Of a stretch of 5,769 nt of DNA, positions 1-4,234 are shown piece by piece. The first letter of the stretch is position 1; each line of letters begins with the position of its first letter. Below the pieces are notes generated by a model that saw only the letters and a list, made by a program, of their open reading frames with translations, was not told the DNA's origin and did not search any database. Made by a program: the position numbers and the translations under genes. Source of the DNA: JBBIVP01 sp037439705 [NCBI: bacterium] (lineage in GTDB: Bacteria; JBBIVP01); assembly GCA_037439705.1 (NCBI GenBank), contig JBBIVP010000031.1:8911-14679 (forward strand), written 5' to 3'.

Positions 1-996
1 TGCATAGTAACCCTCCTTGAAGGTAATACGCCCCTTATACCATCCAGGGCAATAAGGGAAATAATTCCCAAAAAAATACAACTCTATTACAAAGCCGAAG
101 GTTTTAACCCCACTGCTTCTTTCAAAGACAGAGGGATGACAGTGGCTGTTTCAAAAGCACTTGAAGATGGAGCAAAAGCAATAATCTGTGCTTCAACTGG
201 AAACACTTCTGCGTCTGCTTCAGCATACGCTGCGAGAGCAGGACTCACCGCATATATATTAGTTCCAAAAGGAAAAATTGCTTATGGAAAGCTTTCCCAA
301 ACAATAGCACATGGTGCTAAAATTGTTCAGATAGATGGTAATTTTGATGATGCTCTTGAAATAGTCAAACAAGTGGCTGAAAAGTATCCAATAACCCTTG
401 TAAATTCCATTAACCCGTACAGGCTTGAAGGTCAGAAAACGGCTTCTTTTGAAATATGCGATGTGCTTGGCGATGCTCCCACATATCATTTTCTACCAGT
501 GGGAAATGCGGGAAATATATCTGCTTACTGGAAAGGATATAAGGAATATTATGAAGAAGGAAAATGTACCCGACTTCCAAAAATGATGGGGTATCAGGCA
601 GAAGGAGCAGCACCTATTGTTAAGGGTGAACCTGTAAAGCATCCAAAAACTATAGCATCTGCTATAAGAATTGGAAATCCAGCAAACTGGGAAAAAGCAC
701 TGAAAGCAAAAGAAGAATCAAATGGTATAATAGACATGGTATCAGACGAAGAAATTCTCTTCGCCTACAATTTTATTGGCTCAAAGGAAGGTATCTTCTG
801 TGAACCAGCATCCGCAGCCTCTCTTGCAGGTGTTTTTAAATATGAAAGGGAAAAGGGCTTTGAAGATGGAGATGTTCTTGTTTGCACCTTAACAGGACAT
901 GGATTAAAAGATCCGGAAGTTCCATTAAAGCTCATGGGAGAACCAATAACAGCTTGTCCGGATCTTTCGGAAGTAGTAAAGGCTCTGGGATTATGA
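1..996 (+). CDS. thrC: Threonine synthase, 5'-truncated by window edge
   Basis: PLP-dependent enzyme (fold type II) that converts O-phospho-L-homoserine to L-threonine and phosphate in the cytoplasm. The frame is open from base 1, giving 331 residues here; about 20-25 N-terminal residues are judged missing against the usual ~350 aa, so the ATG at 136 is internal and not the start. Seen in window numbering: EGNTPL at residues 7-12; NPTASFKDRG, with K42 (codon 124-126) as the expected Schiff-base lysine; ASTGNTSASA at 64-73; and the glycine-rich phosphate-binding loop PVGNAGN at 166-172. The C-terminal part carries EPASAASLAG and LTGHGLKDP, typical of bacterial ThrC. The TGA stop at 994-996 overlaps the ATG of the next gene by four bases, so the two are probably translationally coupled. 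No frameshift or missing key residue was seen. Confidence 0.97.
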   Translation, partial: CIVTLLEGNTPLIPSRAIREIIPKKIQLYYKAEGFNPTASFKDRGMTVAVSKALEDGAKAIICASTGNTSASASAYAARAGLTAYILVPKGKIAYGKLSQTIAHGAKIVQIDGNFDDALEIVKQVAEKYPITLVNSINPYRLEGQKTASFEICDVLGDAPTYHFLPVGNAGNISAYWKGYKEYYEEGKCTRLPKMMGYQAEGAAPIVKGEPVKHPKTIASAIRIGNPANWEKALKAKEESNGIIDMVSDEEILFAYNFIGSKEGIFCEPASAASLAGVFKYEREKGFEDGDVLVCTLTGHGLKDPEVPLKLMGEPITACPDLSEVVKALGL

Positions 997-2192
997 TAAA
1001 GTTCATCATCCTCCATTGCGATGGGGTTGCAGACGAACCGGTTGAAGAACTTGGCAACAGAACTCCTCTTGAGATTGCAAAGACCCCAAACATAGATTTA
1101 ATTGCAGATAAAAGCGAGTTAGGAACATATGAACCGATCCCTCCAGAACTTCATCCTGGAAGTGATGTGGGCACTCTTTCCCTTCTCGGATATAATCCTA
1201 TCCAGTACTATACCGGAAGGGCACCTCTGGAAGCTGCAAGTCTCGGAATTGAACTCAAAAAAGAAGATGTGGCTTTCAGATGCAATTTAGTAAGCGTTAA
1301 AAAAGAAAGAAATAATTTCATAATGGAGGATTACAGCGGTGGACATATTTCTGCAGAAGAAGGAAAAATTCTTATAGAAGCCATTCAAAAAGAACTCGGA
1401 AATTCAAAAATGAATTTTTATCCGGGCCTAAGTTACAGAAACATCCTCGTCTGGAAGGATGGACCACTGGATGTAAAAATTCCACCTCCTCATGATATAA
1501 TGGGAGAAAGGATAAATGTTTTTATTGAAGAAAACATTTCAATAAAAGAGATTTTCTTAAAATCATACGAAATTTTATCAGGTCATCCGTTGAACAGAGA
1601 AAGAGTGAACAATGGCAAAAAACCCGCCAATGCGGTCTGGTTGTGGGGACAGGGAAAAACCCCGACAATACCTACCTTAAAGGAAATGTATAAAATTGAA
1701 TCAGCAGTAATATCTGCTGTTGACCTTGTAAAAGGCATAGGAAAACTTGCAGGAATGAAAATCATAAATGTGCCCGGCGCAACAGGATATATGGATACAA
1801 ACTTTAAAGGAAAGGTGGAAGCATGTGTTGAATCTTTAAAAGAAGTTGACCTTATCCTTCTTCATGTTGAGGGAATAGACGAGGTCTCACATACAGGAGA
1901 TGCAAAAAAGAAAGTTGAAGCAATTGAAATTTATGACTCAGAGGTTGTTGGAAGATTAATGGATAAAGTTCAGGGATTTAAAAATTTAAGAATACTCCTC
2001 ACATCAGACCATAGAACACCCGTTCGTATAAAAACCCATTCTCACGGTGCAGTCCCGTACCTAATTTTCTCTTCAGATTCAATCAAAAAAACAGGTTTGA
2101 GATGGACTGAAAAAGATTGTGCAAGGGGGAATTACATCCAGCGAGGTTATGAACTTTTTAAAAAATTTATAGAACCCGCCTTGAGAAAATAA
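993..2192 (+). CDS. ApgM-family phosphomutase, probable homoserine kinase analogue
   Basis: This 399-aa protein belongs to the archaeal-type cofactor-independent phosphoglycerate mutase family (alkaline-phosphatase superfamily). One branch is annotated as 'proposed homoserine kinase' because of its linkage to threonine genes. Two-metal-site residues can be placed by analogy with iPGM: D10 (CDGVADEP), the nucleophile S57 (HPGSDVG), D339 and H340 (TSDHRTP) for one metal; D296, H300 (GIDEVSHTGD) and H351 for the other. YYTGRAPLEAASLGI and WLWGQGKTPTIP are family landmarks. The ATG at 993 was preferred over an in-frame ATG at 882: translation from 993 begins at the conserved first beta strand, the extra 37 residues would overlap thrC, and ATGA coupling is typical of operons. 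The only SD is a modest AAAGG at 978-982. Being coupled to thrC favours homoserine phosphorylation; glycolytic mutase activity remains possible. Family is certain; role is inferred. Confidence 0.95.
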   Translation: MIKFIILHCDGVADEPVEELGNRTPLEIAKTPNIDLIADKSELGTYEPIPPELHPGSDVGTLSLLGYNPIQYYTGRAPLEAASLGIELKKEDVAFRCNLVSVKKERNNFIMEDYSGGHISAEEGKILIEAIQKELGNSKMNFYPGLSYRNILVWKDGPLDVKIPPPHDIMGERINVFIEENISIKEIFLKSYEILSGHPLNRERVNNGKKPANAVWLWGQGKTPTIPTLKEMYKIESAVISAVDLVKGIGKLAGMKIINVPGATGYMDTNFKGKVEACVESLKEVDLILLHVEGIDEVSHTGDAKKKVEAIEIYDSEVVGRLMDKVQGFKNLRILLTSDHRTPVRIKTHSHGAVPYLIFSSDSIKKTGLRWTEKDCARGNYIQRGYELFKKFIEPALRK

Positions 2193-2236: not shown

Positions 2237-2292
2237 AAGGAGGGTGAGTGCCGTCAGACACGACCCTTTATGCTGAATTAGGCGAAGTTTAA
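2237..2292 (+). other. Strong SD plus 14-codon GTG ORF (orphan)
   Basis: A near-ideal Shine-Dalgarno, AAGGAGGGTGA, at 2237-2247 is followed at 2248 by GTG and 13 further codons encoding VPSDTTLYAELGEV, with TAA at 2290-2292. The last codons lie inside the left inverted repeat. There is no apparent protein family. It may be the stump of a gene whose body was lost when the R-M cassette arrived, a small leader peptide, or chance. The rest of the apgM to methyltransferase gap (2193-2236) shows no strong hairpin, so no clear bidirectional terminator between these convergent genes was found. Confidence 0.3.
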
Positions 2293-2296
2293 CTTT
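2275..2296 (+). repeat. Left inverted repeat of the R-M cassette
   Basis: The core TAGGCGAAGTTTAACTTT (2279-2296) matches the reverse complement of 3897-3914 at 17 of 18 positions; extending outward to GAAT/GAGG gives 19 of 22. The methyltransferase stop codon (2289-2291, - strand) lies inside it, so the repeat marks the downstream end of the R-M gene pair. No target-site duplication was evident just outside the two copies. Confidence 0.75.
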
Positions 2297-3176
2297 TTTC
2301 ATAATTAAATAAATCTAATATCTTCTGTTCTTTGTTTATTTTTTTATTTTTTGGACTATATCTCCCGGTAAATTCCCCTTTTTCTTTTCTTTCTTTAAAT
2401 GTCTTCTCTACTACATGCCTTGCTATTTCCACCCTCACATAATTTTCTTCAGATTTGTAATTTTCTAACCTTTTCTCGGCAAATTCAATATATTCTTCTG
2501 ATATTTCTATTCCAATAAAATCATGTCCTAATATTTTTGCCGCAACTAATGTTGTTCCACTTCCACAGTAAGGGTCAATTACCACTCCTTTTTTTTCGTC
2601 CATAATCGAATAAATTGCTCTAACAGGCAATGCCAAAGGAAAAGGTGCTGGGTGAGGATTTTTTTGTTCGGGTGGAAATCGCCAGATTGATGTCAATAAA
2701 GCGTGTTTTGGCTTCAATTCCTCTCCAATTAGAGTTCTTCCTTTCGGCTTATAAAGCCAATATATCCTCTCTTCTACTTGCCAGAACCTCCAACCCCTGA
2801 TATTAGCAGCAATCATTCTATCCCAGATTATCTCTTGTCTAATTACCCACTTCGTTTTTCTCAGCCAATCCAATGGATGAAACATCAAGCCTTTTTCCCA
2901 TCTCAATTTATGATTATAGAAGAATGAACCGCCAGGTTTAGTAATCCTATAAATTTCATTTAAAATATCAATTTGACCTTTTTGATATTCTTCCTCTGGT
3001 AATTTATCTGTAGCACTTGAATACTTTACATTTTTTACTAACCAACCTTTTTTATTCTCGCCTTTATTGTAAGGCGGAGATGTTACTCCAACATCAACGA
3101 TTTCATCTGGTAACATCTTTAAAATTTTTAGTGCATCACCTTGAATTATCTTGTTTAGATATTCTTCTTGAGTCAT
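2289..3176 (-). CDS. Type II beta-class DNA methyltransferase (m4C or m6A)
   Basis: This 295-aa protein is an S-adenosylmethionine-dependent DNA methyltransferase that would protect the cassette's recognition sites. Motif order is IV then I, which defines the beta class: the catalytic TSPPYN at residues 32-37 follows the QGDALKILKMLPD segment near the N terminus, and the AdoMet-binding DPYCGSGTT is at 201-209. NPHPAPFP (174-181, H176) just before motif I is also typical. SPPY rather than DPPY is common for N4-cytosine enzymes but occurs in N6-adenine enzymes too, so the base is unresolved. Between the motifs lies the likely target-recognition part. A lysine-rich tail of roughly 50 residues follows the conserved fold. 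The ATG overlaps the endonuclease stop (ATGA, 3173-3176), so expression is probably coupled. The gene is AT-rich compared with thrC-apgM. The recognition sequence cannot be predicted by eye. Confidence 0.93.
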   Translation of the reverse strand: MTQEEYLNKIIQGDALKILKMLPDEIVDVGVTSPPYNKGENKKGWLVKNVKYSSATDKLPEEEYQKGQIDILNEIYRITKPGGSFFYNHKLRWEKGLMFHPLDWLRKTKWVIRQEIIWDRMIAANIRGWRFWQVEERIYWLYKPKGRTLIGEELKPKHALLTSIWRFPPEQKNPHPAPFPLALPVRAIYSIMDEKKGVVIDPYCGSGTTLVAAKILGHDFIGIEISEEYIEFAEKRLENYKSEENYVRVEIARHVVEKTFKERKEKGEFTGRYSPKNKKINKEQKILDLFNYEKS

Positions 3177-3882
3177 TTTGTTTTTCCCTCTAAAAAGTTA
3201 TAAAAATTTCTTGTTATGTATTCCTTATACTTTGATAGCTCAGTTTTATTTAAAAGATAAACAATCTTTAAATTGGGACAATGGAAATAATCTTTATAAT
3301 CAAATTCAGCGCTTCTTAAAAATTGTCCCCTTGTGCTTTTGCTTCCCTTTAATTTTTCCTTCCATCTTTGAATTTTTGACTCTAAATTTTTTATAAAATC
3401 TGGGTAATTAAATGGAAACTCAATGATATAAATGAGTTTCCCATCTACAAACCCACTCACCAACATATTTAGGTCTTTCTCTCTTTTATCCTTTTGCAAT
3501 CTCGCTGGAGTATAATCTGTAAAATTCCCACCACCATTTAATTTTGCTGGGGGTGTTTTTCTTTCACCCCTTTATATTTTTCAAATTCCTCAGTATTTAC
3601 ATTTTTGGGTTTTGCCTCACATTTTATAGTTCTTCCAGAAACAAAAGCATCTTGCTTAAAACCATTATATCCTATTTTCCCTTCTTTATGTGTGTATCCC
3701 GCTAAAGTGACGGTTATAAACTCCCTTACGGTTGAAGAGTTTTTATCATTTATATATATCGTAAGCAAGTCGACCAACATTCCTATAAGTGTATCTTTTG
3801 ACTTACCTATAAGATAGTTGTTTAATTCCTGATGAATCCCTGTTGAATATATTTTTATAACATTGGCTAATTCCTGGTTCAT
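3173..3882 (-). pseudogene. Type II restriction endonuclease, PD-(D/E)xK-like, frameshifted
   Basis: Two frames read as one gene. The first (ATG at 3882-3880) runs 114 codons to a TAA at 3540-3538; the second continues to TGA at 3175-3173. Backing up one base within 3549-3560 (AAAAACACCCCC on the - strand) joins residue K109 to TPPAKLNGGGNFTDYTPAR and then the 108-residue rest, giving about 236 aa, a normal size for a type II endonuclease. GFKQDAFVSG...KCEAKPKN has D78 and E89-x-K91, a plausible PD-(D/E)xK active site; the second half includes NMLVSGFVDGKLIYIIEFPF. The start has a good SD, GAGGTG, five bases upstream. The stop overlaps the methyltransferase ATG, the main contextual evidence for an R-M pair. 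I do not recognise the specificity family. Translation beginning at the internal TTG (3499) would lack the catalytic residues. It may be a true pseudogene, a slippage-controlled gene, or a sequence error. Confidence 0.75.
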
Positions 3883-3887
3883 ATTTT

Positions 3888-3893
3888 CACCTC
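3888..3893 (-). promoter_or_regulatory. Ribosome binding site of the endonuclease gene
   Basis: GAGGTG on the - strand, followed by five bases and then ATG at 3882-3880. It supports this start and shows that the upstream frame of the endonuclease retains a proper translation signal. It sits a few bases from the right inverted repeat. Confidence 0.7.
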
Positions 3894-3896
3894 ATT

Positions 3897-3918
3897 AAAG
3901 TTAAATTTCGCCTACCTC
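3897..3918 (-). repeat. Right inverted repeat of the R-M cassette
   Basis: On the - strand this reads GAGG then TAGGCGAAATTTAACTTT, matching the + strand of 2275-2296 at 19 of 22 positions. It contains the stop codon of the small upstream ORF and ends just before the endonuclease SD. Together with the left copy it encloses only the endonuclease and methyltransferase genes, about 1.6 kb. Confidence 0.75.
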
Positions 3919-4115
3919 GTCCGTATTCTTCTGTTTTGGCGGTGTAACCGAACTAAGCTCAGAGATATCATGCTCTGGCTGAACCAAAGATTCCATCCTT
4001 TTTTGAGAATTCTTACTATCTCTGTTTGAATTGTAATTGAAATATTATCCGGTAAGAATACAGTTATCCTGTCCCACGAAATTTCTCCAATTCTTATACT
4101 TTTCATAACCCGCAT
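3901..4115 (-). pseudogene. Small unknown ORF upstream of R-M genes, apparently frameshifted
   Basis: From ATG at 4115-4113 one frame encodes MRVMKSIRIGEISWDRITVF and continues through LPDNISITIQTEIVRILKK. After six A's (3999-4004 as T's on the + strand) that frame goes on with a Trp/Arg-rich stretch to a TAG at 3914-3912. A one-base step back at the A run instead gives a polar, more natural tail, RMESLVQPEHDISEL then SSVTPPKQKNTDEVGEI, ending at TAA 3903-3901; the repaired protein is 71 aa. I do not recognise the family. Eighteen bases separate its stop from the endonuclease ATG, which suggests one transcript. Controller proteins often sit here in R-M systems, but no helix-turn-helix is apparent. 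Its end lies in the right inverted repeat. It could equally be a decayed fragment of a host gene cut by the cassette. Confidence 0.45.
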
Positions 4116-4129
4116 TGCTTCTGCTTTTT

Positions 4130-4157
4130 ATTATAATAAAATTTTGAAAAAAAACAA
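4130..4157 (-). promoter_or_regulatory. Candidate sigma-70 promoter for the small ORF/R-M operon
   Basis: On the - strand a perfect -10, TATAAT (4135-4130), is preceded after 16 bases by a partial -35, TTGTTT (4157-4152). A start about 7 bases downstream would leave an almost leaderless message for the ATG at 4115, and no good SD precedes that ATG. A second TATAAT lies at 4176-4171 but without a recognisable -35. Confidence 0.45.
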
Positions 4158-4170
4158 GGAAAATGTTCCT
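4147..4170 (-). terminator. Weak intrinsic terminator after the RND exporter
   Basis: On the - strand AGGAA-CATT-TTCCT (4170-4157) forms a 5-bp stem with a 4-base loop, followed by TG and eight T's (4154-4147). It is placed about 65 bases downstream of the exporter stop. The stem is short and AT-rich, so termination would be inefficient at best. It overlaps the -35 of the promoter candidate. The remainder of 4116-4234 shows no gene. Confidence 0.35.
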
Positions 4171-4234
4171 ATTATAAGAAAGCCTCTATTTTTCTCTTAT
4201 TAACAAAAGAATAGAAACATTAATGTACAGCCTT

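What the first reader, a model, noticed from the sequence alone, without database searches (positions are those of the whole stretch)
2275..3918. R-M gene pair bracketed by a 22-bp inverted repeat
The sequence at 2275-2296 and the reverse complement of 3897-3918 agree at 19 of 22 positions. They enclose only the endonuclease and methyltransferase genes, with one copy overlapping the methyltransferase stop and the other abutting the endonuclease SD. This precise placement suggests the ends of a mobile R-M module, a recombination scar, or an invertible segment. No transposase is inside, so movement would need help in trans.
Basis: partly seen in the sequence, partly recalled or inferred. Interest (0 to 1): 0.6.

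Follow-up and report, generated by a model that had tools for sequence, protein, structure and literature searches.

The report
Inverted repeat around decayed restriction-modification pair
A phage-type restriction-modification gene pair, whose endonuclease gene looks broken, sits between two near-matching 18-base inverted repeats that may be worn-down ends of a small once-mobile unit, a kind already described, though chance is not excluded.

Summary
The repeat is real: 19 of 22 positions agree (core 17 of 18, 2279-2296 and 3897-3914), one copy over the methyltransferase stop, the other 3 nt from the endonuclease Shine-Dalgarno. Its placement exceeds chance: 0 of 1500 shuffled windows; best score 12 in 652 gene units of 47 other loci, 15 here. 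The enclosed genes are a phage-type type II R-M pair. M is intact, of the SPPY type. R matches phrog_3210, function unknown; a viral homologue is predicted to have a PvuII-like fold. R here is probably dead: frameshifted, and Asn at an Asp invariant in 19 of 19 viral homologues. Eight distinct viral relatives tested lack such a repeat. There is no exact target duplication of 4 bp or more, only a TA at each outer edge. No genome, close relative or empty site could be reached, so mobility is untested. Degenerate terminal repeats of a small R-M unit is slightly favoured over coincidence; [quoted passage not shown] Inversion has no support. Not a new kind of system.

The parts
2279..2296 (+). arm 1 of the inverted repeat (19 of 22 if taken as 2275-2296); overlaps the M stop codon
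3897..3914 (-). arm 2 of the inverted repeat (19 of 22 if taken as 3897-3918); ends 3 nt upstream of the R Shine-Dalgarno
2289..3176 (-). M: N6_N4_Mtase family (PF01555), 295 aa, TSPPYN motif, intact; closest solved chains are named DNA cytosine-N4 methyltransferase
3173..3882 (-). R: endonuclease homologue of phrog_3210, split by a frameshift into ORF 3882-3538 and a second frame ending at 3173; Asn at the position of the Asp invariant in viral homologues
   Evidence: fold of a viral homologue
3549..3553 (-). run of five C (minus strand) at about which the two R frames part
2241..2267 (-). hairpin followed by a T-rich stretch downstream of M, outside arm 1; possible terminator of the R-M transcript, not picked up by the consensus scan
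   Evidence: absent from the list
3912..4115 (-). 67-aa ORF between MMPL and R, no family match; a neighbouring frame ends in arm 2; gene status unknown

Best explanation
A phage-type type II R-M pair was gained horizontally and now lies in the gap between the convergent genes apgM and MMPL. The inverted repeat is best read as worn terminal inverted repeats (about 16 bp plus a TA at each outer edge) of a small unit made of little more than R and M, which would have been moved in trans by a transposase that cuts at those ends and inserts at TA. Shown: the repeat, its non-random placement, the pair's homology to viral R-M pairs, the composition difference, the frameshift and the Asp-to-Asn difference in R. 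Inferred: that the arms are ends, that TA is a target duplication, that R is inactive, and that the unit is now immobile and behaves as a lone methyltransferase.
For: Placement beyond chance. TA at the outer edge of both arms. Segment 2279-3914 has 32.2% G+C against 38.0-40.4% in thrC, apgM and MMPL. R and M are adjacent in the same order in viral contigs: 9 of the 12 loci, and 10 of the 72 R loci with 600 nt or more downstream (these 10 are 7 distinct contigs after removing copies). [quoted passage not shown]
Against: No exact target duplication of 4 bp or more with edges allowed to slide by several nt. No bracketing repeat in eight distinct viral R-M relatives (best scores 7 to 9). The exact core was found in viral contigs only in two contigs sharing one stretch, about what I would expect by chance (my own rough estimate, not computed in a call). 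No transposase among the ORFs scanned. The only promoter-like site of the consensus scan that could serve R within about 400 nt upstream (4249-4222) and the hairpin downstream of M lie outside the arms, so the bracketed unit might depend on outside expression signals; the scan finds no more promoter-like sites than shuffles do (19 against 16.8). TA may be a by-product, since TA is its own reverse complement. No empty site.
Confidence: 0.4

Rival explanations
1. Coincidence: two AT-rich stretches near gene ends happen to match; no function.
For: 11.6% of shuffled windows hold a spaced inverted repeat this strong somewhere; many windows were read and striking cases selected; no such arms in the relatives tested; no target duplication of 4 bp or more.
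Against: 0 of 1500 shuffles and 0 of 652 real gene units match the placement and score.
Confidence: 0.33
2. Scar of illegitimate recombination or a residue of a larger island: the arms are short homologies through which foreign DNA was joined, not ends of a unit able to move.
For: Foreign-looking R-M pair in a convergent gap with unassigned sequence on the right (3915-4234, 32.5% G+C, like the pair).
Against: From general knowledge: inverted rather than direct repeats are not the expected product of simple homology-driven insertion.
Confidence: 0.12
3. Regulatory: the arms are binding sites, or pair in the transcript (leader with M stop region), controlling R and M expression.
For: Arm 2 lies in the R leader beside the Shine-Dalgarno; the best duplex between the 60-nt leader and the 60-nt tail is -30.1 kcal/mol, reached by 2 of 1000 shuffles; R-M systems with operator control are known (PMC3874152, passages).
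Against: The duplex score restates the repeat itself; no controller gene among the proteins scanned; no such arms in the relatives tested.
Confidence: 0.12
4. Invertible segment: a recombinase flips R-M between the arms.
For: Only the inverted orientation of the arms.
Against: No recombinase among the seven ORFs scanned; 3 of 22 mismatches; one search lists no promoter-like site pointing into the segment within 300 nt of either arm (one lies about 310 nt off, 4249-4222 minus).
Confidence: 0.03

Closest known systems
[quoted passage not shown]
   Same: A compact R-M pair with imperfect inverted repeats at both ends and no transposase seen inside.
   Different: No target duplication beyond a possible TA, and no empty site to show insertion. 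The 2010 paper itself is not held and was not read.
IS-linked movement of R-M systems (PaeR7I, PMC3031569)
   Same: R-M moved by a transposase supplied from outside.
   Different: There most products used IS1 or IS5, with target duplications of 8-10 or 4 bp; no IS was identified in this window (abstract and passages seen; window scans).
R-M pairs and R genes without this M in phages (phrog_3210; cyanophages and tRNA-rich phages)
   Same: Same R and M families, same order where both occur.
   Different: No bracketing repeat in those tested; 62 of 72 viral R loci with room lack an adjacent M of this type.
PvuII restriction endonuclease
   Same: Fold predicted for a viral R homologue: best PDB matches are PvuII chains (Foldseek E 1.9e-5; Z 10.6, rmsd 5.0 over 141 residues).
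   Different: 11-15% identity; specificity unknown; the window's R lacks the invariant Asp and was not itself folded.

Membership tests
R-M unit with transposon-like ends | inverted repeats at both ends of the R-M pair | tested here: met
R-M unit with transposon-like ends | short target duplication flanking the repeats | tested here: inconclusive
   no exact one of 4 bp or more; TA only, which the repeat's symmetry could give
R-M unit with transposon-like ends | empty site in a relative, with edges at the repeats | not testable with these tools
   no genome held; nearest apgM reached 41-46% identical
type II R-M system | methyltransferase gene of a DNA N4/N6 family, intact | tested here: met
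   PF01555 E 2.3e-35; PADLOC MTase_II
type II R-M system | adjacent intact endonuclease gene | tested here: not met
   homologous gene present but frameshifted, with Asn at an otherwise invariant Asp; a sequencing error could explain the frameshift but hardly both. Activity itself was not testable
PvuII-like PD-(D/E)XK endonuclease | fold and ExK motif in the R family | tested here: met
   model of a viral homologue, pLDDT 94.9; E and K invariant in 19 of 19 and present in the window. The window's own R was not folded
integron cassette | attC-like pair RYYYAAC ... GTTRRRY 40-150 nt apart | tested here: not met
   none on either strand; the motif is recalled, not from a call
invertible segment | recombinase and both orientations in reads | not testable with these tools
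   no reads; no recombinase among the seven ORFs scanned

The most novel reading that the evidence does not exclude
A minimal non-autonomous transposon, about 1.6 kb, whose terminal repeats overlap the M stop codon and abut the R Shine-Dalgarno, carrying a phage-derived R-M pair and inserting at TA: an R-M cassette trimmed to its coding sequence and moved in trans.
Probability: 0.15. Interest if true: 0.5.

Novelty: new member of a known kind. Interest (0 to 1): 0.25.

Why it matters
R-M systems turn over fast in genomes yet are poorly represented on mobile elements, which Oliveira and colleagues call an intriguing question (PMC4176335, abstract and passages). A unit with ends set tightly around R and M would be a concrete route. 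The evidence here is too thin to claim it.

Tried and rejected
Whole-window maximum inverted-repeat score was uninformative because self-palindromes count in it (the window's two best are self-palindromes); replaced.

Longer gapped homology between the two flanks: 191 of 1000 shuffles do as well with the arms included, and without the arms 298 of 500, so under that gapped scoring nothing stands out and the similarity stops at the arms.

The 18-base core in viral contigs: two contigs (L018, L019) that share a stretch and show no further similarity to the window; taken as chance.

Both arms can be read in frame as the end of a short peptide (ELGEV-stop, EVGEI-stop); with three differences this cannot be told from chance. 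The joined flanks are open across the junction in several frames; I judged this unremarkable without a computed control.

Integron attC, Rfam (only a sub-threshold CRISPR repeat inside apgM), tRNA in the window (none): nothing. R in plasmids: no match. R profile in 398 genomes drawn from the phylum of G001: 0 matches, without a positive control. R among solved-structure sequences: none. The right-hand ORF in plasmids: only matches at E about 10. The MMPL protein in 199 genomes of that phylum: best match by E-value 27% identical, so the host's lineage was not reached. Paper searches.

In one search the R starts of L028 and L100 were taken at the furthest upstream ATG, so their flanks may be off. 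L007, L009 and L010 are copies of L006 and L008 over most of their length, and L032-L036 and L042-L044 are the same contigs as L005, L006, L007, L004, L011, L008, L009 and L010. L013-L015 were not tested for arms: no R beside M was found by tblastn, L014 beginning inside M at its contig end.

Full report
Observation. Arm 1 covers the stop of M (2289-3176, minus). Arm 2 ends 3 nt before the GAGGTG of R (start 3882, minus). Besides R and M only short antisense ORFs lie between, and these were not scanned.

Chance. A spaced inverted repeat of this score occurs somewhere in 11.6% of 1500 dinucleotide-shuffled windows, so its mere presence is not remarkable. Its placement is: in none of the 1500 did one lie within 20 nt of both ends of the pair, or of any of five other gene units, and the analytic expectation for the pair is about 2.5e-5. 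Against mononucleotide-shuffled flanks of 140 nt, 0 of 1000 reach 15. In real sequence, 652 gene units from 47 dereplicated loci of 107 gave a best score of 12. Two tests went the other way: the whole-window maximum that counts self-palindromes and a gapped comparison of the flanks (191 of 1000 shuffles as good) showed nothing unusual. The case was selected from many windows, which weakens the favourable numbers by an unknown factor.

What is bracketed. M is a DNA methyltransferase of PF01555 (E 2.3e-35) with a TSPPYN motif; the closest solved chains are named DNA cytosine-N4 methyltransferase (8s9n, E 2.1e-44). SPPY is shared with most bacterial N4C enzymes according to PMC8885841 (passages). 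R has no Pfam, NCBIfam or PADLOC match. Its two halves each match phrog_3210, function unknown. Relatives with R directly upstream of M were found in 9 of the 12 viral loci fetched with M; in these M is 57-61% identical and the R proteins aligned are 28-36% identical to the window's. A viral homologue (L005) was folded with 18 others: pLDDT 94.9, best PDB matches PvuII (Foldseek E 1.9e-5; Z 10.6, rmsd 5.0, 141 residues). So the family is very probably a PvuII-fold nuclease.

State of R. The window's R is split: one frame runs 3882-3538, the other ends at 3173, and homology continues from one to the other at about a run of five C. In 19 of 19 viral homologues an Asp shortly before the Glu of ExK (seven residues before it in L005) is invariant; the window has Asn at the aligned position, next to an insertion that makes the alignment just after it less certain. 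A sequencing error might give the frameshift; the second difference makes a decayed R the better reading. That the Asp is catalytic is inferred from the nuclease fold.

Origin. The segment 2279-3914 has 32.2% G+C against 40.4, 38.2 and 38.0% for thrC, apgM and MMPL. It lies between convergent genes. The homologues of R that I found are in viruses: 99 relatives in viral contigs, of which 80 were kept, and 48 phage records; none in plasmids, and 0 of 398 genomes of one phylum, a search without a positive control. Other phyla could not be searched. A phage-type pair gained horizontally is well supported, by what route is not.

Are the arms ends? For: placement, a TA at each outer edge, compactness, and a published precedent (PMC3874152, section 7). 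Against: no exact target duplication of 4 bp or more; similarity stopping at the arms, and no related copies found in viral contigs; no such arms at eight distinct viral relatives, whose best scores are 7 to 9 (two of the eight with uncertain R starts); and expression signals possibly outside: a hairpin with a following T-rich stretch at 2241-2267 (not in the consensus list, and the fold as a whole is not unusual, z -1.07), and no promoter-like site on the minus strand between R and 4222 (a scan that finds no more sites than shuffles do). The decisive empty-site test could not be made: no genome is held, and the nearest apgM genes reached are 41-42% and 46% identical.

Alternatives. Regulation by binding sites or leader-to-tail pairing is possible but rests on the repeat alone. 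Inversion has no support. Coincidence remains a serious rival. I give terminal repeats of a small once-mobile unit 0.4 and coincidence 0.33.

Verdict. A real but modest feature. If it is what it may be, it is one more R-M unit with transposon-like ends, not a new kind.

Noticed in passing
loci L028-L107: phrog_3210, listed as of unknown function, is probably a PvuII-fold nuclease family; of 72 viral loci (copies not removed) with 600 nt or more downstream, 10 have an adjacent M like the window's and 62 do not, so many look like stand-alone endonuclease genes. The test sought only relatives of this M; some loci have another methyltransferase within 1.5 kb.
   Followed up: partly
L004, L005, L006, L008, L010: In several viral contigs the R-M pair sits within a tRNA array: the nearest tRNA gene ends about 35-100 nt upstream of R, and further tRNA genes lie downstream of M (57 nt to about 1.6 kb). 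L012, L028 and L100 have none, L011 only distant ones.
   Followed up: partly
window 2289-3176: M is closest among solved structures to chains named DNA cytosine-N4 methyltransferase (8s9n, 8s9m); I recall, without a call, that these may be the bdelloid rotifer enzyme. PMC8885841 says the rotifer enzyme clusters with phage methyltransferases of unknown specificity (passage).
   Followed up: no
window 993-2192: The gene called apgM passes the cut-offs both of TIGR02535 (proposed homoserine kinase) and of PRK04200 (phosphoglycerate mutase), and overlaps the end of thrC, so it may serve threonine synthesis rather than glycolysis.
   Followed up: no
window 3912-4115: A 67-aa ORF with no family match lies upstream of R; the neighbouring frame, open to a stop inside arm 2, looks as protein-like to the eye, which hints at a decayed gene.
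   Followed up: partly
L026 2929-3525 (Synechococcus phage ACG-2014d): An R homologue annotated hypothetical protein follows a helicase gene, with no methyltransferase annotated in the 6.4 kb shown.
   Followed up: no
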